In this document: in pieces, positions 9,758 to 24,759 of the stretch
Numbering within the stretch: position 1 is the first letter of the stretch
Layout: every line of letters starts with the position of its first letter
From: Nitrospirota bacterium
Lineage (GTDB): Bacteria > Nitrospirota > Thermodesulfovibrionia > Thermodesulfovibrionales > JdFR-88
Direction: 5' to 3'
NCBI GenBank assembly: GCA_021789555.1
Contig: JAJYJK010000020.1
Coordinates: 1-39,293, forward strand
DNA: 39,293 nt
Program-made: the position numbers and the translations under genes
Notes under the pieces: model-generated
Seen by the model: the letters and a program-made list of their open reading frames with translations, nothing else
Told to the model about the DNA's origin: nothing
The model's database searches: none

Positions 9758-11158
9758 ATGGCGAGGCTTGATGCAAGGTGCAAGACGCGGATACCCGTTG
9801 TGATCATAATAAAGGGGGAAGGCCGGGATTTTCAGTCCTTTGCGTCGAACCTGGGTCTGGGGGGGGCGTTCATAAATTCCTCGTTATCGCTGCCTGAAAA
9901 CACGCAAGTCAGGCTCAAGGCGCCCCTGCCGGGCGGGGAATTCGAGGTGGACGGCAAGGTGCTCCGGAGAGAGGAAAACGGGGTGGCGGTGAAATTCCTG
10001 GGTGTCGAGGAAGATGCAAAGGCCGGCCTTTGGGAATATATAAAAGAGAATATGGAGAAAACGGCCTGCCCGTTTTGCGGGGCCGCCCTGCCGGCAGAAA
10101 ACGCCAGGTGTTCAGACTGCGGGATGACGACGGACCTGGCCAGACCGGGGTATCTGGAGAAATATCAAAATGAACAGGTTGCCGCCTGGTGCAGCATGCT
10201 TGATATGGAGACGGAACGTTTCCTGGGCACGATGGATGAGCTTGAGGCTGGACTCCTTAAAGGCAGATATGAGCATGATGTCATTTTAAAGAAGACCCAT
10301 GACGCAATTGAGGAGATATTATCTTTTTGCGCCAAATTCGCGCGCAATGTCCGGGACAGAGAATTAATTATAAAAAAACAAGATGAATTCAACAATAAAA
10401 CTGATTATATACTTTCTAAAAGCTATTTCATGAATCACGCCCGAGTATGGCCTAAGGGCTATCAGGGCGATTACAAGATGCTGGAAGGCATCTATAGAAA
10501 TATTCCCCTTTCGGAAGGGATTGGCTACTATTTGGATTGTTATTTGCTTGCTTTCACTCTTTCAAGGGCATGCAGAGGAAGGCTCGACAAGGCAAAAAGA
10601 ATACTCAAGGGCGAGTTGCTCAGGCAAAAAGGACGGCGAATCCTTGACATCGGGTGCGGCTCAAGCAGGGACCTTTTTGAGATTGCCGAAGATATAAGGG
10701 ACTCGAACGCCGATATTACTTGCATCGATATCGATGATGACGCCCTTCGCTTCTCACTTAATCGCCTGGCATATGCCGGGCTTGGCGATCAGATAAAATT
10801 CCGGAAATATAACGTGGTCCGGATGATAAACCGCGAGAGAAATCTCAGGGAATTCGGGAAACAGGAAATCATTTACAGCGCGGGCGTCTTCAATTACCTG
10901 CCGGATGACATCGTCCCCAATCTGATAGACGCTCTCTATGAATTATTGAACCCGGGCGGCAGGCTGATAATAGCCTTCGAGGATGCCGACCGTTACCGGC
11001 CGCAGAATTGTCACTGGGGCTTAAAATGGGACGCGCTCATACAGCGCACCGAGATCGATTGCCGGGCGCTTTTTGAAGCGGCCGGGTTCCCCGAAGGTGC
11101 GATGAAAATAAAGCGCGATGAAACGGGTGTTATCATGTTCTGCATTCTGGAGAGGTAA
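9758..11158 (+). CDS. PilZ / zinc-ribbon / SAM-methyltransferase fusion protein
   Basis: A 466-residue protein with an unusual domain order. Residues 1-100 resemble a PilZ c-di-GMP-binding domain: RCKTR supplies RxxxR, and NLGLGG stands where (D/N)xSxxG is expected, so the serine is replaced by glycine. About 103-125 is a zinc ribbon (CPFCG, CSDCG). Residues 130-290 are helical and unassigned. Residues 295-466 are a class I methyltransferase (motif I RILDIGCGSSRDL, acidic motif CIDIDDD, LLNPGGRLIIAF). The substrate is unknown. AAAGGAGG precedes the ATG. Its stop and the start of the hybrid kinase share one base (TAATG), so the two are coupled and probably act in one signalling pathway. Confidence 0.75.
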   Translation: MARLDARCKTRIPVVIIIKGEGRDFQSFASNLGLGGAFINSSLSLPENTQVRLKAPLPGGEFEVDGKVLRREENGVAVKFLGVEEDAKAGLWEYIKENMEKTACPFCGAALPAENARCSDCGMTTDLARPGYLEKYQNEQVAAWCSMLDMETERFLGTMDELEAGLLKGRYEHDVILKKTHDAIEEILSFCAKFARNVRDRELIIKKQDEFNNKTDYILSKSYFMNHARVWPKGYQGDYKMLEGIYRNIPLSEGIGYYLDCYLLAFTLSRACRGRLDKAKRILKGELLRQKGRRILDIGCGSSRDLFEIAEDIRDSNADITCIDIDDDALRFSLNRLAYAGLGDQIKFRKYNVVRMINRERNLREFGKQEIIYSAGVFNYLPDDIVPNLIDALYELLNPGGRLIIAFEDADRYRPQNCHWGLKWDALIQRTEIDCRALFEAAGFPEGAMKIKRDETGVIMFCILER

Positions 11159-13332
11159 TGGTCTCACGTCCGCAACCTGCCCCCCAACCTGCTCCCGCCG
11201 AGAAGCAGAATTATATAAATGAGCACACGTTGCTCTTCACCCACTATTGGATAAACGTGATTGCTTTTACCGGCGCTGTTCTTTTTCCTATCTTCACCCT
11301 TGTGGATTATTTCGTTTCACCCAAGGATCTTACGTTTTTCTTCCTTGTCAGGTGTGTAATGGTGATCATTCTTCTTTCACTGTCTTTCATCAACATAGCT
11401 GTAAACCGGGGAAAAATAAAAAAGAGCGTGCTCAATCTTTTGGTCTTTGCAGCGGCTGTTTCATCGGCGGCCGCCATTGAGATAATGATCCTAAGACTGG
11501 GCGGGGATCGCTCGACCTATTACGCGGGCCTTATCCTGGTTGTCATAGGTTCTCTCGTTATACCTTTGGACTTTATCTACTCAATCATTACAGTGGGAAT
11601 GATTTATCTTGTTTATCTACTACCTATACTGCTAATAAAAGGTGGAATAGCTGATTACCCTGCATTCATAAACAATAATACCTTCCTTGTATCAGCTATG
11701 GGAATTGCCCTCATGTGGCGGTTCTTGAGCCAGAAAAATCTTGAAAACATGCTCGGCCTCCAATATGAACTCGATCAGAACAAAAAACAGCTTGAATCCT
11801 ACTCCAACGAACTCGAGCATCTCGTTGAGGCGCGCACGAAGGAGCTGAACAAGTCCGAGCTGATGCTCCGCTCCCTCTTCCAGAACGCCCAGGACGGCAT
11901 CCTGATAATGGATGAAAACGGCAATATCCTGGATGTGAACCGGGCGCTCTGCGACATCCACGGTTTCGACAAAAACACCCTCATAGGCGCCAATATTGTG
12001 CTCCTGGAGGCGCATGAGGGCGACGAGCTTTTCCGCGAGCGCATGGCGCGCCTGCTGAGCGGCGAGTCCCTCCTTTACGAGACCCGCCACTACAGGAAAG
12101 ACGGCAGCAAGGTCAATCTCGAAGTGAGCTCGAAGGTCATCGAAGTCGACGGCCGCCGGCTGATACAGTCCTTCTACCGCGACATCACGGAGAAGAAGAA
12201 GATGCAGGCCCAGCTCGTCCACTCCCAGAAGATGGAATCGATAGGCCAGCTTGCCGGGGGCATCGCCCACGATTTCAACAACATCCTCACATCCATCCTC
12301 GGTTTTACGGAGCTGATCCTCCTCAAGGACGACGTGGACGAATCAGTTGCGGGCAAGGTAAGGACGATAGAGAAGGTATCGAGGCAGGCCGTCCAGATGG
12401 TCTCGAAACTCCTCAGCTTCGCCAGGAGGGGCTATTTCGAGCCCGTCCCCTTCAGCATCGACAAGGCCGTCGAAGACACGCTGGAGATGATGTCCAGGCT
12501 CATCCCAAAGGAGGTAACGGTCCTGAAGGAGCTTGGGACGCCCCTTGCCGTTGTGGAAGGCGACGTCAGCATGATGGAGCAGGTCCTGATGAACCTGATC
12601 ATAAACGCAAGAGACGCCATGCCGAAGGGCGGGACCCTCACCGTGAGGACCTCGGCCGTCGAGCTTGGGCCAAGCGACCTGGAGATCGGCGCCGACGTGC
12701 AGCGGGGCATGTACGTAAACATCCTCGTCGGGGACACCGGCGTGGGGATACCGGAGGGCGATGTCCCGCACCTCTTCGAGCCCTTTTTCACAACCAAAGA
12801 GAAGGGCAAGGGGACGGGCCTGGGGCTTGCCATGGTCTACGGCATCGTGAAGGAGCACAAGGGATACATCACGGTGAAAAGCAGGCCCGGCCGAGGCGCC
12901 GATTTTAACGTCTATATCCCGCTTTGCGTCAAGAAAAACCGTCCGGCAAAAAGCGAAAGGCCGCAGGTCACAGGCGGCGAGACGATACTTGCAATCGATG
13001 ATGAGGTCCCCGTACTGGAGTTCATAAAGGAGACCCTCAGGGACAGTGGTTTCAACGTAATTACGGCTGATGACCCCCTCCACGGGCTTGACCTCTTCAA
13101 GAACAATTCAGGCGGGATCAATCTTGTCATCACCGATATGGCGATGCCCGTCATGGACGGCGGCCAGCTCATAAGGAACATAAAGACCATAAACCCGCGG
13201 GCCAGGATAATCGCCGTGACCGGCTTTAATGAAAACGATGAGGACAATAACATAGACATCCTCCTTAGAAAACCCTTCTCCGGCAGCAAGCTCCTCACGA
13301 CCGTGCGGGAAATCCTCGACCGCCCGGCCTAG
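11158..13332 (+). CDS. membrane hybrid histidine kinase with PAS and receiver domains
   Basis: A 724-residue sensor kinase. About residues 25-195 hold six hydrophobic helices of an unassigned membrane sensor. A coiled coil (200-240) leads to a PAS domain (245-350). HisKA carries the phosphorylated His371 in [17 protein letters not shown]. HATPase_c includes [18 protein letters not shown] and [19 protein letters not shown]-terminal receiver domain has Asp660 in [12 protein letters not shown]. The HDFNN/GLAMVYG type is common in phosphorelay hybrid kinases. No separate response regulator is adjacent. The upstream PilZ-methyltransferase is the likeliest partner. The sensor part is markedly more AT-rich than the catalytic part. 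Confidence 0.93.
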
Positions 13333-14973: not shown

Positions 14974-17427
14974 CTACGCGGGCTCCACTTTCACGGCCAC
15001 CATGGGGGCCTCGCCGTTTGATGGAGGCGAGGTGAGCAGGTTTACCCTGGCGTGGGCGAAATGCGTGGGGACGAAGACCATTCCCTCGGGGACTTCCTCG
15101 GTCACCTTCGCCTTCAGGTAAATGACAGCCCCGTTTTTGCCGCTTATTTTAGCAAATCCCTCATCCACTACTCCGCCGGCCAATGCATCCGCCGGGTTTA
15201 TCTGCAGGTATGCGTCCGAGACGGCGGAGCCCAGGTTTTTGGATATGGTGGTAAGGCTGCCGGAGTGCTGCATGAGGTTGCCGGTGGCAAGCAGCAGCCG
15301 GTAGCCGTCCTCCGCCGTCTCAGTCGTTGCCTGCTCCACGGCGGTCAGGGCGGGCGTGACCGCGGGTTGCTGCGCGGAGAGCACGTTTTTTGCGGCCTCG
15401 GCGGAAACCTCCTCGAAATTATTGGCGCCCATCTCCGCCTGCATGAGCCTTCCAAGGTTTCTGACTATCTTCCAATCCGGCATCGAGATGCCGGTCTCGG
15501 GCAGGCATCTGACGAACCTCTGGGGTCTGCCCGTGAGGCCCACGAACGTGCCTTCCTTCTCGCTCCAGCTTGCGGCGGGCAGCACGACATGGGCGAGGCC
15601 GGCCGTCTCGGTCATCATTATGTCCTGCACGATGAGCAGCTCAAGCCCCTCCAGGGCCTTCACGACCTTTGCCGTATCGGGGAAGGTGACGGCGGGGTTT
15701 TCGCCCATGCTGTAGAGGGCCTTTATCTGCCCGCCTCCGTATAGCATCTGCTGTGCGTCGAGGCCCATGCCGTCCTCTCCAAAGGCCATCTGAAGCCCCA
15801 GGGTGTTTGCGAACTCGGGCGGGAAGCCAAGGGCTTCCGGCCCTCTTCCAAGCATTATTGCAAGGTCCATCAGCGCAAGCGCCGTCCCCTCGCCTTTCGT
15901 GTTCCCGGAGCTTCCGAATGTGGCAAAGAACATCGGGTTTTTGGCGGCGGCAAGCGCGGCCGCTGTCCGCCTTATCTCTTCCGCGGGGACCCCGGTCATG
16001 CGGGCCGCCTCATCGGGACTGTACTTCTTGAGGTTTTCCCGGAGGGCTTCGAACCCGGTTACCTTTTCGGCGTCCCTGTTATGAAGGCCCTTCTCAAGCA
16101 AGGCGCTCATAATTCCGTTTACCAGGGCAACGCCGGTTGCGGGCTTGCTCCTGAGCCAGCTTGAGCTCCATCTGGTGAACTTTGTCTCCTGCGGGCCCGC
16201 CACTATCAGGGCCGCCCCCAAATCCCTGTGGGCGGCCAGCACCTTCAGGCCGTAGACCGGATGGGTGGAGGTGAGATCGGATTCGAGCACAAAAAGGACG
16301 TCGGCCGCAAGCGGGGCATTGAAGTCGAGGGCAAGCCACGGGATGCCGAAGGCCTTTTTTAGCGCGCTTGCCTGTTTATGGTAGCCGAACCTCGCCCTTG
16401 AATCCAGGTTGTTTGAGCCGACGGCGAGGGACATGAACTTCTTGAGCATGTAGTTGTCCTCTACCGAGCAGCGCTCCGAACCCAGGGCGCCCACGCACTT
16501 CGCGCCGTGTTTTGCCTTTAGCTCCGTAAGTTTTGCCGCTATGAACTCCAGGGCCTCCTGCCAGCTCGCCGGTTCCAGCTTGCCAGCTTTTCTTAAAAGC
16601 GGGGTTTCAAGCCTGTGCTCGGACTCTATGAAGTCAAAGCCGAACCGCCCCCTGGGGCAGAGGTCGCCCTCGTTTATTCCGACGCCGTCTTTGCCCCTGG
16701 CGCGCATTATGCGCCCCTCCCGGAGGCTGAGCACCGTAGTGCAGCCCACGGAGCAATACGGGCAAATGTTTTCCTGCTCGTCCATGAACCAGACCCTCGA
16801 GCGGAACCGGTAGGGCTTTGTGCCCAGGGCGCCCACGGGGCAGGAGTCCACGCACTGGCCGCAGAACTCGCAGTCCAGGGTCTCCTCGAAGGCGGGGCTT
16901 ATCTTTGTCTTGAAGCCGCGGCCTATCAGGTTTATCGCCCCGACCCCCTGGTGCTCCTTGCAGACCCTCACGCATTTCCCGCAGAGGATGCAGCGGTTTG
17001 TGTTTCTCTCGATGAGCGGGGCGGCGAGGAATTCGGGCTCGTGCTTGCGCTCGCCCTTGAACCTGCTTTGCGAGGGGCCGTACTTGAACGCCAGGTCCTG
17101 AAGCTCGCACTCCCCGGCCTTGTCGCAGACCGGGCAGTCAAGCGGATGGTGCACAAGCAGCAGCTCAAGGACTGTCCTTCTGGCCTTATCAAGCTTCGGC
17201 GTTTCCGTCTGGACCACCATCCCCTGCTCGGCCGGCGTGGAGCACGAGGCGAGCAATTTCTTTTGCCCCTCGATCTCGACCAGGCAGAGGCGGCAGCCGC
17301 CGTACGGGGTGAGTCTCCTGTCCCAGCAGAGGTGAGGTATGTAAATGCCGTTTGCCTGCGCCGCCTGCAGTATGGTGCTCTTGGGCGGGCACTGGACCTT
17401 CTTTCCGTTTATCGTCAGCTCTATCAT
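14974..17427 (-). CDS. NuoG/FdhF-like iron-sulfur molybdopterin-fold subunit without Mo ligand
   Basis: An 817-residue protein. Residues 1-80 are a [2Fe-2S] ferredoxin domain. The His-Cys3 [4Fe-4S] motif follows (HHPLDCPVCDKAGEC), then two [4Fe-4S] clusters (CILCGKCVRVC, CEFCGQCVDSCP) and the cluster motif CPYCSVGC before a molybdopterin-oxidoreductase fold to about 800. Similarity to E. coli FdhF is clear (KLEPASWQEAL, IVQDIMMTETA). Where FdhF has ARVUHGPS, this protein reads ARFGYHKQA, so no Cys or Sec can bind molybdenum. ATG 17427 overlaps the NuoF stop (ATGA) behind AGGAGTGGAGG. It holds the slot taken by HydA in [FeFe]-hydrogenase operons; no H-cluster motif is present. Inferred role: electron-wiring subunit; terminal substrate unknown. 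Confidence 0.85.
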   Translation of the reverse strand: MIELTINGKKVQCPPKSTILQAAQANGIYIPHLCWDRRLTPYGGCRLCLVEIEGQKKLLASCSTPAEQGMVVQTETPKLDKARRTVLELLLVHHPLDCPVCDKAGECELQDLAFKYGPSQSRFKGERKHEPEFLAAPLIERNTNRCILCGKCVRVCKEHQGVGAINLIGRGFKTKISPAFEETLDCEFCGQCVDSCPVGALGTKPYRFRSRVWFMDEQENICPYCSVGCTTVLSLREGRIMRARGKDGVGINEGDLCPRGRFGFDFIESEHRLETPLLRKAGKLEPASWQEALEFIAAKLTELKAKHGAKCVGALGSERCSVEDNYMLKKFMSLAVGSNNLDSRARFGYHKQASALKKAFGIPWLALDFNAPLAADVLFVLESDLTSTHPVYGLKVLAAHRDLGAALIVAGPQETKFTRWSSSWLRSKPATGVALVNGIMSALLEKGLHNRDAEKVTGFEALRENLKKYSPDEAARMTGVPAEEIRRTAAALAAAKNPMFFATFGSSGNTKGEGTALALMDLAIMLGRGPEALGFPPEFANTLGLQMAFGEDGMGLDAQQMLYGGGQIKALYSMGENPAVTFPDTAKVVKALEGLELLIVQDIMMTETAGLAHVVLPAASWSEKEGTFVGLTGRPQRFVRCLPETGISMPDWKIVRNLGRLMQAEMGANNFEEVSAEAAKNVLSAQQPAVTPALTAVEQATTETAEDGYRLLLATGNLMQHSGSLTTISKNLGSAVSDAYLQINPADALAGGVVDEGFAKISGKNGAVIYLKAKVTEEVPEGMVFVPTHFAHARVNLLTSPPSNGEAPMVAVKVEPA

Positions 17428-19271
17428 ATCGCCTCCACTCCTTTCGCCCTGGCCAGGAGTTCCTGCCTGAGACTGCCGGGGCCGACTTTGAGCGCGCCGA
17501 ACTTGCACGCCTCGTAACAGGAGCGGCATTTAATGCAGAGCTCCTGGTTTATGACATGCGGCTGTTTCTTTTCGCCGGTGACGGCCTTTTGCGGGCAGAC
17601 CCTGGCGCAGGCCCCGCAGCCCTTGCAGGTCTCGGGGTCCACGTAGAAGGTGACAAGCGGCCTGCAGACGCCCGCCTTGCACCAGCCCTCCTTTATGTGG
17701 GACTCGTACTCGTCCCTGAAATATCTTATGGTGGAGAGCACCGGGTTTGGCGCGGTCTGGCCCAGACCGCAAAGAGAGGTGTTTATGATGTCCTGGGCCA
17801 GGTCCTGCAACAGCTCTATATCGCCTTCCATGCCCCGGCCCTCGGTTATGTCCGCGAGCTTGTCGTGCATCACCTTGGTGCCGACCCTGCACGGCGGGCA
17901 CTTGCCGCAGGACTCGTCCGTCGTGAACTCAAGAAAGAATTTAGCCACGCTCACCATGCAGTTGAAATCGTCTATTACGACCATTCCACCTGACCCGACT
18001 ATGGCGCCCGTCTGGACGATGTCCTCGTATGTGACCGGGGTGTCCAGCAGGTGCTCCGGTATGCAGCCGCCCGAGGGGCCGCCCAACTGGACCGCCTTGA
18101 ATTTTCGCCCCTTCTTGATGCCTCCTCCGATGTCGAATATCACTTTTCTAAGCGGTATGCCCATCGGCACCTCGATGAGCCCTATATTGTTGACTGAGCC
18201 GGTGAGGGCGAAGACCTTCGTGCCGGTGGATTTTTCCGTGCCGAGGCTCTTGAACCAGTCCGCGCCGTTTAGGATTATGGACGGGATATTGGCATAGGTC
18301 TCGACGTTGTTGAGGACCGTCGGCTTTTTCCAGAGGCCCTGCACCGCGGGAAACGGCGGCCTCGGTATGGGCATGCCGCGCTTCCCCTCGAGGGAGCGCA
18401 TGAGCGCGGTCTCCTCGCCGCAGACAAACGCCCCCGCGCCCTGGTATATCTCGATGTCCAGAGAGAACCCGGTGCCCAGGATGTTTTCGCCCAGCAGGCC
18501 ATATTCCCTGGCCGCGTCAATTGCCTTCTGGAGCCTCTGCACCGCCAGCGGGTACTCGGCCCTGACGTATATATAGCCCTTGCTCGCGCCGATTGCCCTT
18601 GCGCCTATTATCATGCCCTCCAGCACCACGTGCGGGTCCGCCTCCATGACGCTCCTGTCCATGAAGGCCCCGGGGTCGCCCTCGTCGCCGTTGCAGAGGA
18701 TGTATTTCAGGGGACCGGGCACCCTTGAGCAAAGCTCCCATTTAAGGCCGGTGGGGAAGCCCGCGCCGCCCCTGCCCCTGAGGCCCGAGGCCTTGACCTC
18801 CTTTACAACGTCCGCCGGGGTCATCTCCGTCAGCGCCTTCGCGGCCGCCCGGTATCCGTCCCTGGCGATATATTCCTCTATCTTTTCCGGGTCCACCAGA
18901 CCCTTGTTCCTCAGCGCCCGGAGCACCTGCAGGTTGAAAAACGGGATGTCCTTCATTACGGGCACGATCTGTTTTTTGTCCGGTTCCTTGTACATGAGTT
19001 TCTGGACCGGCCTGCCCTTCAGCAGATGTTCCTCCACTATGAGGGGGACGTCCTCGGGGGTCAGCTTCTCATAGAAGATGCCGTCCGGGTAGACGGTCAT
19101 GATGGGTCCCTCGGCGCAAAAACCGTTGCAGCCGGTGAGTATTATATTTATCTCCTTATCAAGCCCCTTGTTTTTGAGCTCCGCCTCGAGGGCGTGCTTC
19201 ACCTTGAGCCCGCCGCTCGCGATGCAGCCCGTCCCTCCGCATACCATCAGGTTGGCCCTGAATTTATCCAT
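17424..19271 (-). CDS. NuoF/HndC-type NADH-binding flavoprotein
   Basis: A 615-residue flavoprotein of the type found in bifurcating hydrogenases and related soluble dehydrogenases. Residues 1-95 form a thioredoxin-like [2Fe-2S] domain (VCGGTGC, TGCNGFC). The NuoF core contains GLRGRGGAGFPTGLKW for FMN/NADH and ESCGKCPPCRVG for the N3-type [4Fe-4S] cluster. The C-terminus adds two ferredoxin-type clusters (CKGCGACARVCP, CIKCRSCYEAC), absent from complex I NuoF but typical of HydB/HndC. It oxidises or reduces NAD(H) and passes electrons to the neighbouring NuoG-like and ferredoxin subunits. It is complete, with GGAGG upstream, and overlaps the next gene by 4 bases. Confidence 0.93.
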   Translation of the reverse strand: MDKFRANLMVCGGTGCIASGGLKVKHALEAELKNKGLDKEINIILTGCNGFCAEGPIMTVYPDGIFYEKLTPEDVPLIVEEHLLKGRPVQKLMYKEPDKKQIVPVMKDIPFFNLQVLRALRNKGLVDPEKIEEYIARDGYRAAAKALTEMTPADVVKEVKASGLRGRGGAGFPTGLKWELCSRVPGPLKYILCNGDEGDPGAFMDRSVMEADPHVVLEGMIIGARAIGASKGYIYVRAEYPLAVQRLQKAIDAAREYGLLGENILGTGFSLDIEIYQGAGAFVCGEETALMRSLEGKRGMPIPRPPFPAVQGLWKKPTVLNNVETYANIPSIILNGADWFKSLGTEKSTGTKVFALTGSVNNIGLIEVPMGIPLRKVIFDIGGGIKKGRKFKAVQLGGPSGGCIPEHLLDTPVTYEDIVQTGAIVGSGGMVVIDDFNCMVSVAKFFLEFTTDESCGKCPPCRVGTKVMHDKLADITEGRGMEGDIELLQDLAQDIINTSLCGLGQTAPNPVLSTIRYFRDEYESHIKEGWCKAGVCRPLVTFYVDPETCKGCGACARVCPQKAVTGEKKQPHVINQELCIKCRSCYEACKFGALKVGPGSLRQELLARAKGVEAI

Positions 19272-19327: not shown

Positions 19328-19711
19328 TCAGTAAGAGGTCTCGCTACCCATCACGAGGGCGTATTCCTCGACAATATTGCCCTGTTGTATGTGCTCCCTG
19401 AATATCCTTTTCATCTTTTCGGCGTTGAGGTAGCAGTATTTGACGGGCGCGGCCCCCAGGAGCTCGACCGTGGCCATCGGCTCCTTGCTGCAGAAACCCG
19501 CGCACCCGGAGGCGGTAACGATCACGTCTTTTACGTCGTTGCTTGCCAGCTCTTCCACAATCGAGTTCATCACGGCGCGGGCGCCGGCCGCGATGCCGCA
19601 GGTCCCCATGTGCACCGTGACCTTGGCCTTGTAGCCGCCCTGCCTGAGATTGAAAGTGGCCGCGTACTGCTCTTTGATCTTCTTGAGGTCGTCTATCGTC
19701 AGTTTTTGCAT
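19328..19711 (-). CDS. thioredoxin-like [2Fe-2S] ferredoxin
   Basis: A 127-residue protein. The cysteine ligands are in HMGTCGIAAGA, ASGCAGFCSKEP and a later cysteine near VKYCYLNAE, the pattern of thioredoxin-fold [2Fe-2S] ferredoxins that accompany HydB/HndC. An excellent AAGGAGGTG lies 8 bases before the ATG. It sits between the receiver-NuoE fusion and the NuoF gene, as the small ferredoxin does in [FeFe]-hydrogenase operons. It probably transfers electrons within the complex or to a soluble partner. Confidence 0.88.
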   Translation of the reverse strand: MQKLTIDDLKKIKEQYAATFNLRQGGYKAKVTVHMGTCGIAAGARAVMNSIVEELASNDVKDVIVTASGCAGFCSKEPMATVELLGAAPVKYCYLNAEKMKRIFREHIQQGNIVEEYALVMGSETSY

Positions 19712-19726
19712 ATCAAAACACCTCCT

Positions 19727-20602
19727 TTATTGGTAATGGGTGAGGATGTCCAGCGCCTTGACGGGATTTACGGAGCCGTGGGTGTCCTTGTCCACCACAA
19801 CGACGGGGGCAAGACCGCAGGCGCCCAGGCACCTGACGCTTTCCAGCGAGAATATCTTGTCGGGCGTCACTTCCCCGATGTCTATCTGGAGTTTTTCCCT
19901 GAGTTTTGCGAGTATCTCCTCGGCGCGTTTCACGTAGCAGGCGGTCCCCAGACATACCCTTACATTGTGTTTGCCCTTGGGCTTCATCGTGAAATAGGAG
20001 TAGAACGAGACGACCCCGTGGACCTCGCTGACGGGCACGTTCAGGCCGCGGGCTATGTGCCTCTGGACGGCCGGGGGCAGAAAACCGACCAGTTCCTGCG
20101 CCTCCTGGAGGACGGGTATGAGCGAGCCCGGCCTGCCCTTGTGCGCCTCTATGATGCCGGTGAGCTTTTCCGCCATCTCGGGGCCGAAATCCACGGCCTC
20201 CGGTTTGCGGGATTTCCTCCGGAACTCGACGGCCTTCTCGGCGGTCTCCGCCAGGAGCGCCGGCGAGAACGGTTTCGGCAGGTAATCGACGATCTTCAGG
20301 GCCAGGGCCTGCTTTATGCTCTCCTGGGACGGATAGCCGGTTATGAGCACCAGGCTGATATCGGGGTCCTTTTCCCGCAGTCTTTTCATGAACTCTATGC
20401 CGTCCATGCCGGGCATCTTGATGTCCGTTATGACGACGTCGAAGGGGGAAGCGTTTTCGCCGGGCATGTTTTCGTCGAGCAGCTCCAGGGCCTTCGCCGC
20501 GGAGGCCGATGTGCTCACCTCAAACCCATCGGGCTTCAATATCCTTTCACAACTCCTGAGGACGATCTCCTCGTCGTCCACAACCAGTATCTTGCCCTTC
20601 AT
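19727..20602 (-). CDS. response-regulator receiver fused to NuoE ([2Fe-2S]) subunit
   Basis: A 291-residue fusion. Residues 1-122 form a CheY-like receiver with ILVVDDEE, phosphoacceptor Asp60 (VVITDIKMPGMDG), the conserved Thr (LVLITGYP) and Lys (YLPKPF). Residues 138-291 are a NuoE/HndA-like 24-kDa subunit: an N-terminal helical part, then ligands CLGTAC and CLGACGLAP, and SFYSYF, which is typical of NuoE. All receiver residues are intact, so phosphorylation is expected. NuoE pairs with NuoF to feed electrons from NADH. The fusion suggests that phosphorylation alters subunit docking or electron flow (inference). AGGAGGGAC precedes the ATG. Reading through 20220-20300 shows one uninterrupted frame, so it is not a two-gene artefact. 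Confidence 0.92.
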   Translation of the reverse strand: MKGKILVVDDEEIVLRSCERILKPDGFEVSTSASAAKALELLDENMPGENASPFDVVITDIKMPGMDGIEFMKRLREKDPDISLVLITGYPSQESIKQALALKIVDYLPKPFSPALLAETAEKAVEFRRKSRKPEAVDFGPEMAEKLTGIIEAHKGRPGSLIPVLQEAQELVGFLPPAVQRHIARGLNVPVSEVHGVVSFYSYFTMKPKGKHNVRVCLGTACYVKRAEEILAKLREKLQIDIGEVTPDKIFSLESVRCLGACGLAPVVVVDKDTHGSVNPVKALDILTHYQ

Positions 20603-20660: not shown

Positions 20661-21224
20661 TTATTCATTCGCCTTCCACATGGCGGCGGCCCTGCCGCCC
20701 GTGGACTCGTTGATGGAATTTCTTATCGACATGAGCACCTCCGGGAGGTTTACGGGCGCCTCCCCCAGGGCTTCTTTAAGCTCGTCTGTGTCGAAACCGT
20801 AGTAAAAATCCCCTTTCTCGTAGAAAAGGACGTAGCGGATCTCCGGGTGGCCGCATATCAGGGCGAGCATGGTGGAGCCGATGTCGCCCAGGGGTTTCAG
20901 GTCTATGTGGCTCAGCTTGAACGAGGCAAAGAGGGTTGTGCCGGCCCCCGGATTGGACGTAATATTAAAGTGGCCGCCGCAGTCGAGGGCCGCCTGCTTC
21001 AAAAGGGGGATGCCGAGCCCGAATTTCTTTTTCCTGTTCGTCGTGAAAAAGGGGTCTTCCACCCTGTGGAGGATGTCCACGCCGATGCCCGGCCCGTCGT
21101 CTTCCACGCTGATGGAGTACAAGTCCTTCACCGGGTCCTCCACTATCCTTAGCACTATCTTTTTGGCCCCCGCGTTTATCGAGTTTTCAGCGATGTCCAG
21201 TATGTGCAGCGACAAGTCCTTCAT
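20661..21224 (-). CDS. GHKL ATPase (histidine-kinase-like, no HisKA)
   Basis: A 187-residue protein starting MKDLSLHILDIAENSINAGA, where the N box is unusually close to the N-terminus. DDGPGIG and KFGLGIPLLKQAALD give the ATP-binding G boxes. There is no phosphoacceptor histidine domain, so it is a stand-alone ATPase of the kind seen next to bifurcating [FeFe]-hydrogenases. The C-terminal 70 residues are an unassigned alpha/beta extension. It starts 2 bases after the PHP gene stop and is therefore translationally coupled. It could phosphorylate or control the receiver domains in this operon, which otherwise lack an adjacent kinase (inference). Confidence 0.85.
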   Translation of the reverse strand: MKDLSLHILDIAENSINAGAKKIVLRIVEDPVKDLYSISVEDDGPGIGVDILHRVEDPFFTTNRKKKFGLGIPLLKQAALDCGGHFNITSNPGAGTTLFASFKLSHIDLKPLGDIGSTMLALICGHPEIRYVLFYEKGDFYYGFDTDELKEALGEAPVNLPEVLMSIRNSINESTGGRAAAMWKANE

Positions 21225-21226
21225 TT

Positions 21227-21970
21227 TCAGTCGATGACCACAGACCTTCCGCCTTCCGATTTGAGCGCCGAGGCGATCTCTGAAAAGCTCGCCCCGTCCA
21301 GCAGGAACCTCGTCTTTTTTTTCCCCACGTCCTCGAGCCTGTGGGCGTCCGAGGAGCTGACGGCCGCCAGCCCGGCCTCTTCGACACAGGGGGGCACGCC
21401 TTTCCCCCCCGAGACCTCCAGGGCGTCGAACCTGACACCGGGCGGGATGAAGCCAAGCTGGGAGATGACGCTAAAGGATTCACGGTCCACGTGGCTGGCT
21501 ATAGCGAGCCCCCCAAGGGCGTGTATGGCCTCCACCAGGGCGTTTAGAGGCATGCCGGTTGCGCCCGCCAGCAGCCTGCTGTTGAAACCCAGCACCTCCT
21601 CGGCCTCGTTCACCACCACCTGCTCGCCCCAGAAGGCGGGGTCGTTTTCCAGGTCCGCCGGCAGGCTGGCATAGACCTTTTCCTGCATCCCGAGGGCGGC
21701 CTGGAGGCTGTCAAAGAGCGCAAGCACATGCACCTCCTCGGCCGAGGCGACCTCCATCGCGGCCAACAGGGTGATGCCCATTTTGCCTGCCAGGCGAAGG
21801 GCGGGCTCGAGGTTTTCGCAGGAGTTATGGTCCGCTATGGCTATTATGTCCAGCCCCCCCGCCAGCGCCCTTTGTATTATCCTCTTCGGGGTCATGTCCA
21901 GCTCCGCACAGGGGGAAAGACAGCTATGTATATGCAGGTCCGCCGTGAAAAACCTCTTTTTGGTCGCCAT
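21227..21970 (-). CDS. PHP-domain metal-dependent phosphoesterase
   Basis: A protein of about 247 residues. FTADLHIHSCLSP (residues 9-21) and AIADHNSCENL carry the first histidine/aspartate metal ligands of the PHP fold; further ligands follow in ASHVDRES and SSDAHR. The fold binds two or three metals and hydrolyses phosphoesters, from histidinol phosphate to nucleic acids; the substrate here is unknown. PHP genes of this kind recur in trimeric hydrogenase operons without assigned function. ATG 21970 is chosen. An upstream GTG at 22036 would overlap the DRTGG gene but sits on top of its own Shine-Dalgarno and adds low-complexity sequence. Confidence 0.85.
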   Translation of the reverse strand: MATKKRFFTADLHIHSCLSPCAELDMTPKRIIQRALAGGLDIIAIADHNSCENLEPALRLAGKMGITLLAAMEVASAEEVHVLALFDSLQAALGMQEKVYASLPADLENDPAFWGEQVVVNEAEEVLGFNSRLLAGATGMPLNALVEAIHALGGLAIASHVDRESFSVISQLGFIPPGVRFDALEVSGGKGVPPCVEEAGLAAVSSSDAHRLEDVGKKKTRFLLDGASFSEIASALKSEGGRSVVID

Positions 21971-22022
21971 TTGTTTTGCCGCCCCGGGCCGGCCTTCAAG
22001 GGGCCAAAGGCTGCGCCTCCCC

Positions 22023-22376
22023 TCAAGCCTTTCCACCTCCCTTGTCCGTCAGAAACAGGTTATAGACGATCCCCGCGGTCTCACACGTCTGCAGGCCGGT
22101 GCTCAGGATGACGATGCCCTCGGACTCGGCCTTTTCAAGGGTCTCGGGGTCTATGTCCTTGTTGCCGGTCACGATTATCCCGGAGAGGCCCTTGATCGCC
22201 GCCACGGCCGCTATGTTCGGGTGGGTCTGCCTGGTGATCCAGAGGTTGCCCTCCTTGCCGTTTGCCAGTACGTCCGAGAGCATGTCGCTTGCGTAGCAGC
22301 CGGTTATCGGCGTGTCCGTGCATCCCTTGTTTTTGAGGCTCAATTCCAGTTTCCCGATAAGTTCATAAATAGTCAT
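22023..22376 (-). CDS. DRTGG-domain protein
   Basis: A 117-residue stand-alone DRTGG domain: ITGCYASDMLSDVLANGKEGNLWIT, followed by VAAIKGLSGIIVTGN and ESEGIVILST, with alternating beta strands and helices. DRTGG domains occur in some phosphotransacetylases and next to CBS domains, where a regulatory ligand-binding role is suspected. Single-domain copies accompany bifurcating hydrogenase operons. It overlaps the upstream ATPase gene by 4 bases (ATGA). It is probably a sensor of metabolite or nucleotide status for the complex; the ligand is unknown. Confidence 0.85.
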   Translation of the reverse strand: MTIYELIGKLELSLKNKGCTDTPITGCYASDMLSDVLANGKEGNLWITRQTHPNIAAVAAIKGLSGIIVTGNKDIDPETLEKAESEGIVILSTGLQTCETAGIVYNLFLTDKGGGKA

Positions 22377-22813
22377 TTTTGCCCATCCGCCCTCAGATTG
22401 ATGATGATTTCAAGTGTTGTCCCCTCTCCTGGCACAGAGTCTATTTGCAATGCGTCGGCGTTCTTTTTTATGTTGGGAAGACCCATGCCGCTGCCCCAGC
22501 CAAACTCCCTCGCCCAGTCCGGCGCGGTCGTATAGCCTTCCTTCATTGCGAGCCCTATGTCCTCTATGCCCGGCCCCATATCGGTCACCGTGATTTTGAT
22601 CTCATCGCCCTCGATCCTGTAATTCAGGCTTCCCGCCACGGCGTGAATGATCACGTTTATCTCGGCCTCGAAGGCGCAGATGGCGGCGCGCCTGATGGTC
22701 TCGCCCGGCACCCCCATCTCCGCCAGCTCGGAGCGCAGACACTTCGAGCCGACCCCGGCATCCGAGAAATCTCCGCCTTTGAGCGGGAAGTAGTCGCTTT
22801 TTCCGGCCCCCAT
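22373..22813 (-). CDS. anti-sigma-factor-type GHKL ATPase (RsbW-like)
   Basis: A 146-residue single-domain ATPase. FEAEINVIIHA is the N box, TDMGPGIED the G1 box, and FGWGSGMGLPNIKKNAD the G2 region. The short length and the lack of a HisKA domain match RsbW/SpoIIAB-like serine kinases or anti-sigma factors rather than sensor kinases. A partner sigma factor or STAS-domain antagonist is not visible here. It follows the receiver-GcvH gene by 27 bases and overlaps the DRTGG gene by 4. In hydrogenase operons a similar gene is often first. Confidence 0.87.
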   Translation of the reverse strand: MGAGKSDYFPLKGGDFSDAGVGSKCLRSELAEMGVPGETIRRAAICAFEAEINVIIHAVAGSLNYRIEGDEIKITVTDMGPGIEDIGLAMKEGYTTAPDWAREFGWGSGMGLPNIKKNADALQIDSVPGEGTTLEIIINLRADGQK

Positions 22814-22840: not shown

Positions 22841-23602
22841 CTAAGCGGCCTGGGGCGCTATGCGAAGCAGCCATACCAGCCAGTTTTCAGACAGGCACTC
22901 GGAGACGAAGCTCGCGAGGGTCTCGTTCACCCTGTCGTTTTTCTGCCTTATGGCGCCGCTCATGGGCGCCATAAGCTCTATTATCTTGCCCTCCCCAAGC
23001 AGTATCCTGGCAAAGGGCTCCCCGGAGGTTATCACAGGCTGCTCTATCATATCTATATACAGGAGGTGGCCGCCCAGGTACCACTGCCTGACGTCGAAAC
23101 CTATCTCCCAGCCGCCCATCACCGGCCTCGCCCATGCTCCGTCCTTGTAATAGATGGCCCGGTCATCGAGTTCGGAGGCGGGGGTTATGTACTGCTTGAA
23201 CTGGTCTATGAAGGCCTTCCTCAGTATCCAGCCCCTCTTGTCGAAGACTTTCGCGGCGATGTTGCGCATGAACTCCGGAGTGAAGGGTTTTTCCAGGAAC
23301 TCGAAGGCCCCGAGCCTTATGGCTTCCTTGGCGTCCTCGAGCGTGGGATAGCCGGTAATCATGACGACGTCCGTCCGGGGCTGTATCACCCTTGCCTGCC
23401 CTAATACCTCTATCCCGCCTATGTCGGGCAACCTGATGTCGGATATAAGGAGGTCAAACTCCTCCGAGGAGAGCCTCTTCAAGGCGTCCGCCCCCCTTGT
23501 GACGGCGCCTACGGCATAGCCCTCGGCCCCCAATATCCGTTTGCAGCTCAGGCCGATGACGGGGTCGTCATCCACAACCAGTATCTTTTTCCTCTCCGCC
23601 AT
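22841..23602 (-). CDS. response-regulator receiver fused to a GcvH-like domain
   Basis: A 253-residue protein, first in the nine-gene operon. Residues 1-122 are a receiver with ILVVDDDP, Asp55 (LLISDIRLPD), MITGYP and FLEKPF. A helical linker leads to a C-terminal domain (about 160-250) resembling glycine-cleavage H protein: GGWEIGFDVRQWYLGG, GEPFARILLGEGKIIELMAPMSGAI and ENWLVWLLRI parallel the H-protein order. In H protein the lipoyl lysine lies 8 residues before the Pro of APVSG; here Gly holds that place and Lys is one residue later, so lipoylation is uncertain. AAGGAGGT lies 5 bases before ATG 23602. The GcvH assignment is by eye from motif order. Confidence 0.8.
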   Translation of the reverse strand: MAERKKILVVDDDPVIGLSCKRILGAEGYAVGAVTRGADALKRLSSEEFDLLISDIRLPDIGGIEVLGQARVIQPRTDVVMITGYPTLEDAKEAIRLGAFEFLEKPFTPEFMRNIAAKVFDKRGWILRKAFIDQFKQYITPASELDDRAIYYKDGAWARPVMGGWEIGFDVRQWYLGGHLLYIDMIEQPVITSGEPFARILLGEGKIIELMAPMSGAIRQKNDRVNETLASFVSECLSENWLVWLLRIAPQAA

Positions 23603-23636
23603 ACGCACCTCCTTCTTGGAAAGCAACTTATGATAA

Positions 23637-23652
23637 AGCAATATCCATGCCA
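23637..23652 (-). promoter_or_regulatory. sigma-54 promoter of the nine-gene redox/signalling operon
   Basis: On the minus strand the sequence TGGCATGGATATTGCT matches the -24/-12 consensus TGGCAY-N5-TTGCW, with GG and GC separated by exactly 10 bases. Predicted transcription starts near 23627, leaving about 25 bases with the Shine-Dalgarno before ATG 23602. The geometry is ideal. No NifA-type TGT-N10-ACA site was found upstream, so the activator is another enhancer-binding protein. Confidence 0.75.
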
Positions 23653-23776
23653 TGCTCTAACTACTTATTATAAAAGAAATCGTGGCTGAAAAGGGGTGTA
23701 TGAAAACAGGTGTAATGTGTGAGAGTTTTTTATACAGGGGGAAGTGAAGTTTTAAGCGTCGATTTTTTTTACGATT

Positions 23777-23934: not shown

Positions 23935-24759
23935 ATGAGAAAGACTTTTATTATTCTGCTTGCGTGCCTGGTCAGCATCGTACTGGCTGCGCCGGTCTTT
24001 GCAAACCCGATTTCGCCAGGGTTCAATTCAAACACGCTGCCTGCCAATGACGACGGCTCTACTGGCGCTGTAAGCACGGGGTTCAATTTCAACTTCTTCG
24101 GCACCACGTACACCGATCTCTACGTCAACAATAACGGCAACGTCACCTTCGGCGGATCCATGTGGACGTACACACCCTTCGGCCTGACCACGAACACGGC
24201 AATCCCGATTATCGCGCCGTTTTTTGCGGACGTGGACACCCGCGGCGCCGGCAGCGGCATTGTCAGCTACGGCACGGGCACCTACGGCGGCCATAACGCC
24301 TTTGGCGTGAACTGGCCGAACGTGGGCTATTACTCCGAGGAGACGGACAAGCTCGACAACTTCCAGGTGCTGCTGGTGGACCGCTCCGACATAGGCGCCG
24401 GTGACGCGGACATCTATTTCAATTACGGCTCGATGCAGTGGGAGACCGGTGACTATAGCGGCGGCACTGACGGACTTGGCGGGCAGTCGGCGCATGTCGG
24501 CTACAGCGCGGGCACCGGAGTGGCAGGGTCCTTTTTCGAGCTTCCCGGTTCTGGTGTCAACGGCGCCTTTATCGATGGCGGGCCGGACGCGCTTGACACG
24601 GGGACAAACGACGGGACCCCGGGGCAGTATCTCTTTAATGTCCGCAATGGCTCAGTGACGCCGGTTTCCGTTCCCGAGCCGTCCACTTTGCTGATGCTCG
24701 GTTTCGGCCTGGCCGGACTGACTGTCGTGAGATTCATGAAAAAAAGAGGGACTGCGTAA
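23935..24759 (+). CDS. secreted nidogen-like-domain protein with PEP-CTERM sorting signal
   Basis: A 274-residue exported protein. A Sec signal peptide occupies about residues 1-23 (MRKTFIILL core, cleavage after PVFA). Residues 35-200 resemble a nidogen extracellular (NIDO) domain: NFNFFGTTYTDLYVNNNGN, IIAPFFADVDTRG, NAFGVNWPNVGYY and DNFQVLLVDRSD. The C-terminus is a classic PEP-CTERM signal: VPEPSTLLML, a hydrophobic helix and a basic end (RFMKKRG). Exosortase would remove the tail and anchor or release the protein at the surface, often with exopolysaccharide. No exosortase gene lies in the window. It has its own sigma-54 promoter and a good Shine-Dalgarno, and is followed by a large stem-loop. 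Confidence 0.92.
   Translation: MRKTFIILLACLVSIVLAAPVFANPISPGFNSNTLPANDDGSTGAVSTGFNFNFFGTTYTDLYVNNNGNVTFGGSMWTYTPFGLTTNTAIPIIAPFFADVDTRGAGSGIVSYGTGTYGGHNAFGVNWPNVGYYSEETDKLDNFQVLLVDRSDIGAGDADIYFNYGSMQWETGDYSGGTDGLGGQSAHVGYSAGTGVAGSFFELPGSGVNGAFIDGGPDALDTGTNDGTPGQYLFNVRNGSVTPVSVPEPSTLLMLGFGLAGLTVVRFMKKRGTA

What the first reader, a model, noticed from the sequence alone, without database searches (positions are those of the whole stretch)
19727..20602. Receiver domain fused to the NuoE [2Fe-2S] subunit
Seen: one uninterrupted frame with a complete CheY-like receiver (Asp60, Thr, Lys) followed by a complete NuoE with its four cysteine ligands. Inference: phosphorylation may directly gate an electron-input subunit, a form of post-translational control of a dehydrogenase that I do not know to be characterised.
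Basis: partly seen in the sequence, partly recalled or inferred. Interest (0 to 1): 0.75.

Follow-up and report, generated by a model that had tools for sequence, protein, structure and literature searches.

The report
Signal switch fused to electron-bifurcation subunit
In uncultured Nitrospirota bacteria, a subunit that passes electrons inside an energy-conserving enzyme carries a built-in signalling switch of the kind that sensor kinases turn on by phosphorylation, so these cells may adjust the enzyme directly rather than only through gene expression.

Summary
One uninterrupted 291-aa frame joins a complete receiver (D9, D10, D60, T88, K110) to a complete NuoE/BfuC (C217, C222, C258, C262). 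All nine residues are invariant in 80 homologues. The fusion is full length in 29 of 41 relatives (plus one contig-edge fragment) and in dozens of independent assemblies, all in one class (Thermodesulfovibrionia), so it is no assembly artefact.

It is not a complex I subunit. It is the only BfuC next to an electron-bifurcating (Bfu-type) BfuB that keeps the B2 cluster ligands. BfuA is NuoG/FDH-like but lacks the formate-site Cys/His.

A likely kinase emerges: a conserved membrane histidine kinase, with CxxCH/CX4CH motifs in most homologues, beside a lone receiver and an NtrC-type regulator (contig C45 here; adjacent to the fusion in many relatives). The receivers of RR-BfuC, of an RR-GcvH protein and of those two regulators group together. 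The kinase occurs wherever the fusion does. A sigma-54 promoter precedes the operon here and in 26 of 63 relatives (0.75% background).

Best reading: a kinase-controlled bifurcating enzyme, regulated transcriptionally and probably by phosphorylating BfuC. Gating itself is inferred. No published description found in the open library.

The parts
19727..20602 (-). RR-BfuC: receiver (aa 1-120, alpha5 to 132), flexible linker 133-140, NuoE/BfuC [2Fe-2S] domain (aa 141-291)
   Evidence: Pfam both domains; invariant D9 D10 D60 T88 K110 and C217 C222 C258 C262 in 80 homologues; AlphaFold2 model pLDDT 83.7, pTM 0.63, residues 133-138 under 50
20243..20602 (-). receiver domain, residues 1-120
   Evidence: Response_reg 1.9e-26
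19730..20158 (-). NuoE/BfuC domain, residues 149-291
   Evidence: 2Fe-2S_thioredx 1.1e-47; best PDB relatives 7t2r_C, 8a6t_C, 7q4v_C, all BfuC/HydC
19328..19711 (-). 127-aa thioredoxin-like [2Fe-2S]-type small subunit
   Evidence: weak 2Fe-2S_thioredx hit 0.0017; conserved gene position in relatives
17424..19271 (-). BfuB (HydB type): FMN domain and B1-B5 cluster motifs
   Evidence: 7t2r_B 8.7e-258 over residues 4-594; C438, H525, C531, C536 and T476 match the A. mobile B2 ligand positions
14974..17529 (-). BfuA, NuoG/FDH-alpha-like, formate-site Cys-His replaced by Gly-Tyr (frame overlaps the end of BfuB; alignable homology begins near residue 29-36)
   Evidence: NCBIfam NuoG 472 bits against cut-off 470; FDH alignment; same site in relatives
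20661..21224 (-). stand-alone HATPase_c protein without HisKA (compare A. woodii HydE)
21227..22036 (-). PHP-domain protein
22023..22376 (-). DRTGG-domain protein
22373..22813 (-). RsbW/SpoIIAB-like ATPase
22841..23602 (-). RRX: second receiver protein, with a C-terminal GcvH-like domain without a conserved lipoyl lysine (ORF opens at 23653; likely true start 23602)
   Evidence: Response_reg 4.4e-26; C-terminal profile hits only glycine-cleavage H proteins, best 1.1e-6; Shine-Dalgarno aaggagg before ATG at 23602
23637..23652 (-). sigma-54 -24/-12 promoter-like site TGGCATGGATATTGCT
   Evidence: same motif before RRX in 26 of 63 relatives against 0.75% background

Best explanation
The gene encodes the BfuC (HydC/NuoE) subunit of a Bfu-family, predicted electron-bifurcating NADH/ferredoxin oxidoreductase, with a working phospho-receiver fused to its N-terminus. 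The complex is RR-BfuC + small thioredoxin-like protein + BfuB + NuoG-like BfuA. Proposed mechanism: (1) A membrane histidine kinase with c-haem-type motifs in its extracytoplasmic part senses redox or electron-acceptor state. (2) It phosphorylates a family of sister receivers. (3) The NtrC-type one switches on the sigma-54 promoter of this operon. (4) The receiver on BfuC (and the RR-GcvH protein) is phosphorylated at D60. (5) Its alpha4-beta5 face then changes partner, shifting the mobile [2Fe-2S] domain of BfuC or its docking to BfuB, and so raises or lowers bifurcation. Shown by sequence: the fusion, the intact phospho-site, subunit identity, receiver kinship, kinase co-occurrence and the promoter motif. 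Inferred: the signal, the phosphotransfer and the effect on electron flow.
For: Fusion with invariant phospho-site and cluster ligands in 80 homologues; the receiver is about as conserved as the NuoE half (mean pairwise identity 0.62 vs 0.67), with the beta4-alpha4-beta5 face well conserved and the linker free. BfuB carries the ligands that define bifurcating BfuB (criterion in PMC9304861). Each other BfuB of this genome has its own NuoE nearby, so RR-BfuC is the BfuC of this enzyme. Genomes without the fusion also lack this BfuB subfamily: their best BfuB is 59% identical or less. A candidate kinase with lone receiver and NtrC-type regulator lies on contig C45; in relatives the same kinase lies in or next to the cluster. 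The four receiver types form one group against 42 other receivers of the genome (support 85/93) and RR-BfuC is sister to RR-GcvH (87/92). All 30 fusion-bearing genomes have the kinase; the 8 without it lack the fusion (Fisher 1.7e-6, phylogeny not corrected). Sigma-54 promoter motif. The BfuC C-terminal domain moves during the catalytic cycle in the NiFe-Bfu structure (PMC9304861).
Against: No biochemistry. The relative placement of receiver and NuoE domains is not fixed in the model (pTM 0.63) and no model with BfuB could be made. The kinase pairing rests on kinship and neighbourhood; the receiver group is supported but below the strict threshold (85/93), and in this genome the kinase is unlinked. 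The kinase of this organism keeps only the CX4CH motif, so a haem sensor is uncertain. The third substrate of the enzyme is unknown because BfuA lacks the formate-site residues.
Confidence: 0.55

Rival explanations
1. The receiver is a tether or assembly switch, not a catalytic gate: phosphorylation controls docking of the complex to the RR-GcvH protein, the kinase, complex I or the membrane, and so controls where or with what the enzyme works.
For: Sister receivers on RR-BfuC and RR-GcvH; the RRX gene sits close upstream of RR-BfuC in most loci; complex I genes lie beside the cluster in many genomes; flexible linker.
Against: BfuC is the subunit reported to move during bifurcation, an efficient place for a gate; no direct evidence either way.
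Confidence: 0.25
2. Signal flows the other way: the [2Fe-2S] redox state or enzyme turnover changes the receiver's phosphorylation, so the enzyme reports NADH/ferredoxin status to the kinase and to the NtrC-type regulator (or acts as a phosphate sink).
For: Several sister receivers appear to share one kinase, an arrangement that allows competition for phosphate.
Against: A lone receiver of the same group already exists and would serve as a sink; nothing direct supports signalling out of the enzyme.
Confidence: 0.1
3. The receiver no longer signals and is only a structural or dimerisation domain.
For: Nothing direct; such receivers exist in general (own knowledge).
Against: All five phosphorylation residues invariant in 80 homologues down to about 48% identity; conservation of the switching face.
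Confidence: 0.07
4. Assembly or gene-calling artefact joining two neighbouring genes.
For: The window comes from a 108-contig assembly.
Against: Same fusion in dozens of genomes, including single-contig ones, with no stop codons.
Confidence: 0.01

Closest known systems
Bfu (HydABC-type) electron-bifurcating enzymes, Schut et al. 2022 (PMC9304861)
   Same: BfuB with the cluster ligand positions including the B2 His/Cys set; BfuC NuoE-type; BfuA with NuoG-like FeS region
   Different: BfuC carries an N-terminal receiver; BfuA ends in a NuoG/FDH-like domain without Cys/His, so the third substrate is unclear; the words response regulator, histidine kinase and fusion do not occur in that paper's main text
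Acetobacterium woodii HydABC with HydE (PMC3315566)
   Same: a histidine-kinase-type ATPase encoded with the bifurcating enzyme; HydE is described as not part of the active enzyme and perhaps involved in assembly or signalling
   Different: HydC is described with one [2Fe-2S] site and no receiver; the enzyme is an [FeFe]-hydrogenase
Response regulators with enzymatic output, such as CheB (own knowledge)
   Same: receiver controls a non-DNA-binding partner domain
   Different: the output domain is an iron-sulfur electron-transfer subunit of a multisubunit redox enzyme
Complex I NuoEFG module
   Same: homologous E, F and G subunits; NuoG-like BfuA also lacks a formate active site
   Different: BfuB has N-terminal [2Fe-2S] and C-terminal 2x[4Fe-4S] domains and the B2 ligands; this genome has separate complex I type loci with their own NuoE/F/G

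Membership tests
CheY-like receiver / response regulator | acid pair, phospho-accepting Asp, Thr/Ser and Lys | tested here: met
   D9, D10, D60, T88, K110 invariant in 80
CheY-like receiver / response regulator | is phosphorylated by a histidine kinase | not testable with these tools
   candidate kinase found by kinship and co-occurrence only
BfuC / NuoE | thioredoxin-like [2Fe-2S] domain with four Cys after a helical N-terminal domain | tested here: met
Bfu electron-bifurcating family | BfuB with B2 ligands (His plus Cys) and C-terminal ferredoxin-like clusters absent from non-bifurcating homologues | tested here: met
   C438, H525, C531, C536 (T476 as in most members), two C-terminal 4Fe-4S motifs starting at 549 and 579, N-terminal CGGTGC and CNGFC (criterion)
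Bfu electron-bifurcating family | actual bifurcation of electrons between NAD and ferredoxin | not testable with these tools
   needs purified enzyme
NAD-dependent formate dehydrogenase | Cys/Sec followed by His at the Mo/W site of the alpha subunit | tested here: not met
   Gly-Tyr at that site; Gly constant, second residue Tyr, rarely Phe/His, in the 59 aligned homologues
[FeFe]-hydrogenase | H-cluster domain in BfuA | tested here: not met
   only the N-terminal FeS part matches hydrogenase models; no H-cluster domain
Complex I (Nuo) | encoded with membrane and Q-module subunits NuoA-D, H-N | tested here: not met
   none in the window operon; complex I type loci on C64 and C40 have their own NuoE/F/G. 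Complex I genes neighbour the cluster in some relatives, so a physical link is not excluded
Glycine cleavage H protein (for the RRX C-terminus) | lipoylated lysine | tested here: not met
   GcvH-like profile match but no conserved lysine at the site

The most novel reading that the evidence does not exclude
A two-component system controls flavin-based electron bifurcation directly: a haem-type sensor kinase phosphorylates a receiver built into the mobile iron-sulfur subunit (BfuC) and sets whether NADH and ferredoxin are coupled, while a sister regulator sets expression of the same operon.
Probability: 0.35. Interest if true: 0.85.

Novelty: new variant of a known kind. Interest (0 to 1): 0.62.

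Why it matters
Bifurcating enzymes set the energy budget of many anaerobes, and how cells adjust them quickly is largely unknown. A phospho-receiver fused to the subunit thought to act as the bifurcation gate would be a rare case of two-component control of a core redox enzyme itself, and it offers a handle (D60) to test the proposed conformational gate. It would also help to link the unexplained ATPase, PHP and DRTGG genes beside such enzymes to signalling.

Tried and rejected
Artefact or frameshift: rejected. Plain complex I NuoE: rejected, because the partner is a Bfu-type BfuB and complex I type loci elsewhere have their own NuoE/F/G. Formate dehydrogenase: rejected by loss of active-site Cys/His. 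Operon ATPases as canonical kinases: no HisKA/DHp domain. The hybrid kinase at 11158-13332 as partner: considered less likely, as its own receiver falls outside the group; its kinase core was not tested further. Fusion outside the phylum: not fully tested. The 84,980-species scan returned 80 of 288 loci, nearly all titled Nitrospirota-type (a few titled only as uncultured bacterium or Bacterium BMS3, one as Deferribacteres), and other phyla could not be centred in the genome search. Plasmids hold only unfused NuoE matches. Literature searches found no description, but only open-access text is held. Foldseek of RRX listed only receiver matches; the profile search resolved its C-terminus. No structure of RR-BfuC together with BfuB could be predicted with the tool. 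A coevolution test was not run.

Full report
OBSERVATION. The frame at 19727-20602 lies on the minus strand and reads 291 aa without interruption. Pfam finds a near-complete Response_reg (5-120) and a near-complete 2Fe-2S_thioredx (149-290). Residues D9, D10, D60, T88, K110 and C217, C222, C258, C262 are present and invariant in an alignment of 80 homologues. In 41 relatives a strong match occurs in 30, without stops; 29 are full length and one is cut by a contig edge. In a phylum-wide sample it occurs in 64 of 246 genomes, all in the same class. A scan of one genome per species returned 80 best loci, nearly all titled Nitrospirae/Nitrospirota/Thermodesulfovibrionia, including single-contig genomes. 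It is therefore a genuine, lineage-conserved fusion. The class name Thermodesulfovibrionia is inferred from those titles.

DOMAINS. AlphaFold2 gives a confident receiver and NuoE fold (pLDDT 83.7). Residues 133-138 are under 50 and pTM is 0.63, so the two halves are not fixed to each other in the model. Foldseek places the second half with BfuC/HydC, FdsG and NuoE chains. By sequence the closest solved relatives are BfuC of the bifurcating NiFe hydrogenase (7t2r) and HydC of T. kivui and A. woodii. Mean pairwise identity is 0.62 for the receiver and 0.67 for the NuoE part. The beta4-alpha4 loop, alpha4 and beta5 are far more conserved than alpha2, alpha5 or the linker. The phospho-switching face is thus under constraint.

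THE ENZYME. The next genes encode a 127-aa thioredoxin-like protein, a 615-aa BfuB and an 851-aa BfuA frame. BfuB aligns end to end with 7t2r_B and keeps C438, H525, C531, C536, with T476 as in most Bfu proteins, plus the N-terminal [2Fe-2S] motifs and two C-terminal [4Fe-4S] motifs. These ligands mark the bifurcating family according to Schut et al. (PMC9304861). BfuA matches NuoG just above NCBI's cut-off and also FDH alpha subunits. Where FDH has Cys-His the window has Gly-Tyr; the Gly is constant and the next residue is Tyr (rarely Phe or His) in 59 homologues, so formate dehydrogenase of the known kind is excluded and the third substrate remains open. The genome has four further BfuB genes and two NuoF genes beside complex I type subunits, with separate NuoE copies near them, so RR-BfuC is the only BfuC of this operon. 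Ten genomes lacking the fusion also lack this BfuB subfamily (best 59%): the receiver looks like a fixed part of this enzyme, not an occasional add-on.

THE SIGNALLING SYSTEM. Upstream lie a stand-alone HATPase, a PHP protein, a DRTGG protein, an RsbW-like ATPase and a second receiver protein, RRX. The C-terminal domain of RRX is GcvH-like: a profile hits only H proteins, best 1.1e-6, without a conserved lipoyl lysine. Neither ATPase has a phospho-accepting domain. A HATPase gene is also part of the A. woodii hydrogenase operon, where HydE is described as not part of the active enzyme and possibly concerned with assembly or signalling (PMC3315566). Comparing 57 related loci revealed a further conserved set: a roughly 530-aa membrane histidine kinase, a lone receiver and an NtrC-type regulator, often upstream of RRX and RR-BfuC and beside complex I genes. 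Most kinase homologues carry CxxCH and CX4CH motifs in the extracytoplasmic part; one shows a faint, sub-threshold similarity to the Mcp40H-20 sensor. The window's genome has this three-gene set on contig C45; its kinase keeps the CX4CH motif only. In a tree of receivers of this genome, the four receiver types group together (85/93) and RR-BfuC is sister to RRX (87/92). In the 41 genomes the kinase is present in all 30 with the fusion, and the 8 genomes without it lack the fusion (relatedness not corrected for).

TRANSCRIPTION. A sigma-54 type site (TGGCATGGATATTGCT) lies at 23652-23637 on the minus strand, directly before the likely true start of RRX at 23602, which has a strong ribosome site. 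The same motif stands within 200 bases upstream of RRX in 26 of 63 relatives and before none of the other genes of the cluster, against 0.75% for random stretches. This fits control by the NtrC-type sister regulator.

HOW IT MOST LIKELY WORKS. [quoted passage not shown] In T. maritima HydABC the HydC cluster is thought to have an important role in bifurcation (PMC9499530). A receiver on the N-terminus of BfuC is well placed to bias this movement. I therefore propose kinase control at two levels: sigma-54 transcription, and direct phosphorylation of RR-BfuC (with RR-GcvH as partner or competitor). The second level is inference.

LIMITS. No phosphorylation, no activity and no complex structure could be tested. 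Fusions in other phyla are not excluded, and subscription literature and domain databases were not searched.

Noticed in passing
window 22841-23653 (-): Second response regulator with a GcvH-like C-terminal domain lacking the lipoyl lysine; the longest ORF start is probably wrong, the true start being 23602, because the first codons overlap the sigma-54 type site.
   Followed up: yes
L138 9555-13221 (contig C45 of the same genome): Membrane histidine kinase, lone receiver and NtrC-type regulator; most homologues of the kinase have CxxCH and CX4CH motifs.
   Followed up: yes
window 20661-22813 (-): HATPase, PHP, DRTGG and RsbW-like genes travel as a set near this enzyme in many relatives; their job is unknown.
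   Followed up: partly
L106 10001-11143: In this single-chromosome genome RR-NuoE is followed only by a fragment of the small subunit; no BfuB/BfuA lies next to it.
   Followed up: no
L090 and L094: Two BfuB-BfuA pairs in tandem behind one RR-NuoE, with two unidentified genes between RRX and RR-NuoE.
   Followed up: no
G000 contig C99 76624-78831: FDH-alpha-like gene with one in-frame TGA, a likely selenocysteine formate dehydrogenase.
   Followed up: no
window 23935-24759 (+): Putative secreted protein with a PEP-CTERM-like C-terminus, divergent from the operon.
   Followed up: no
window 9758-13332 (+): PilZ-methyltransferase protein followed by a hybrid histidine kinase with PAS and receiver domains.
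   Followed up: no
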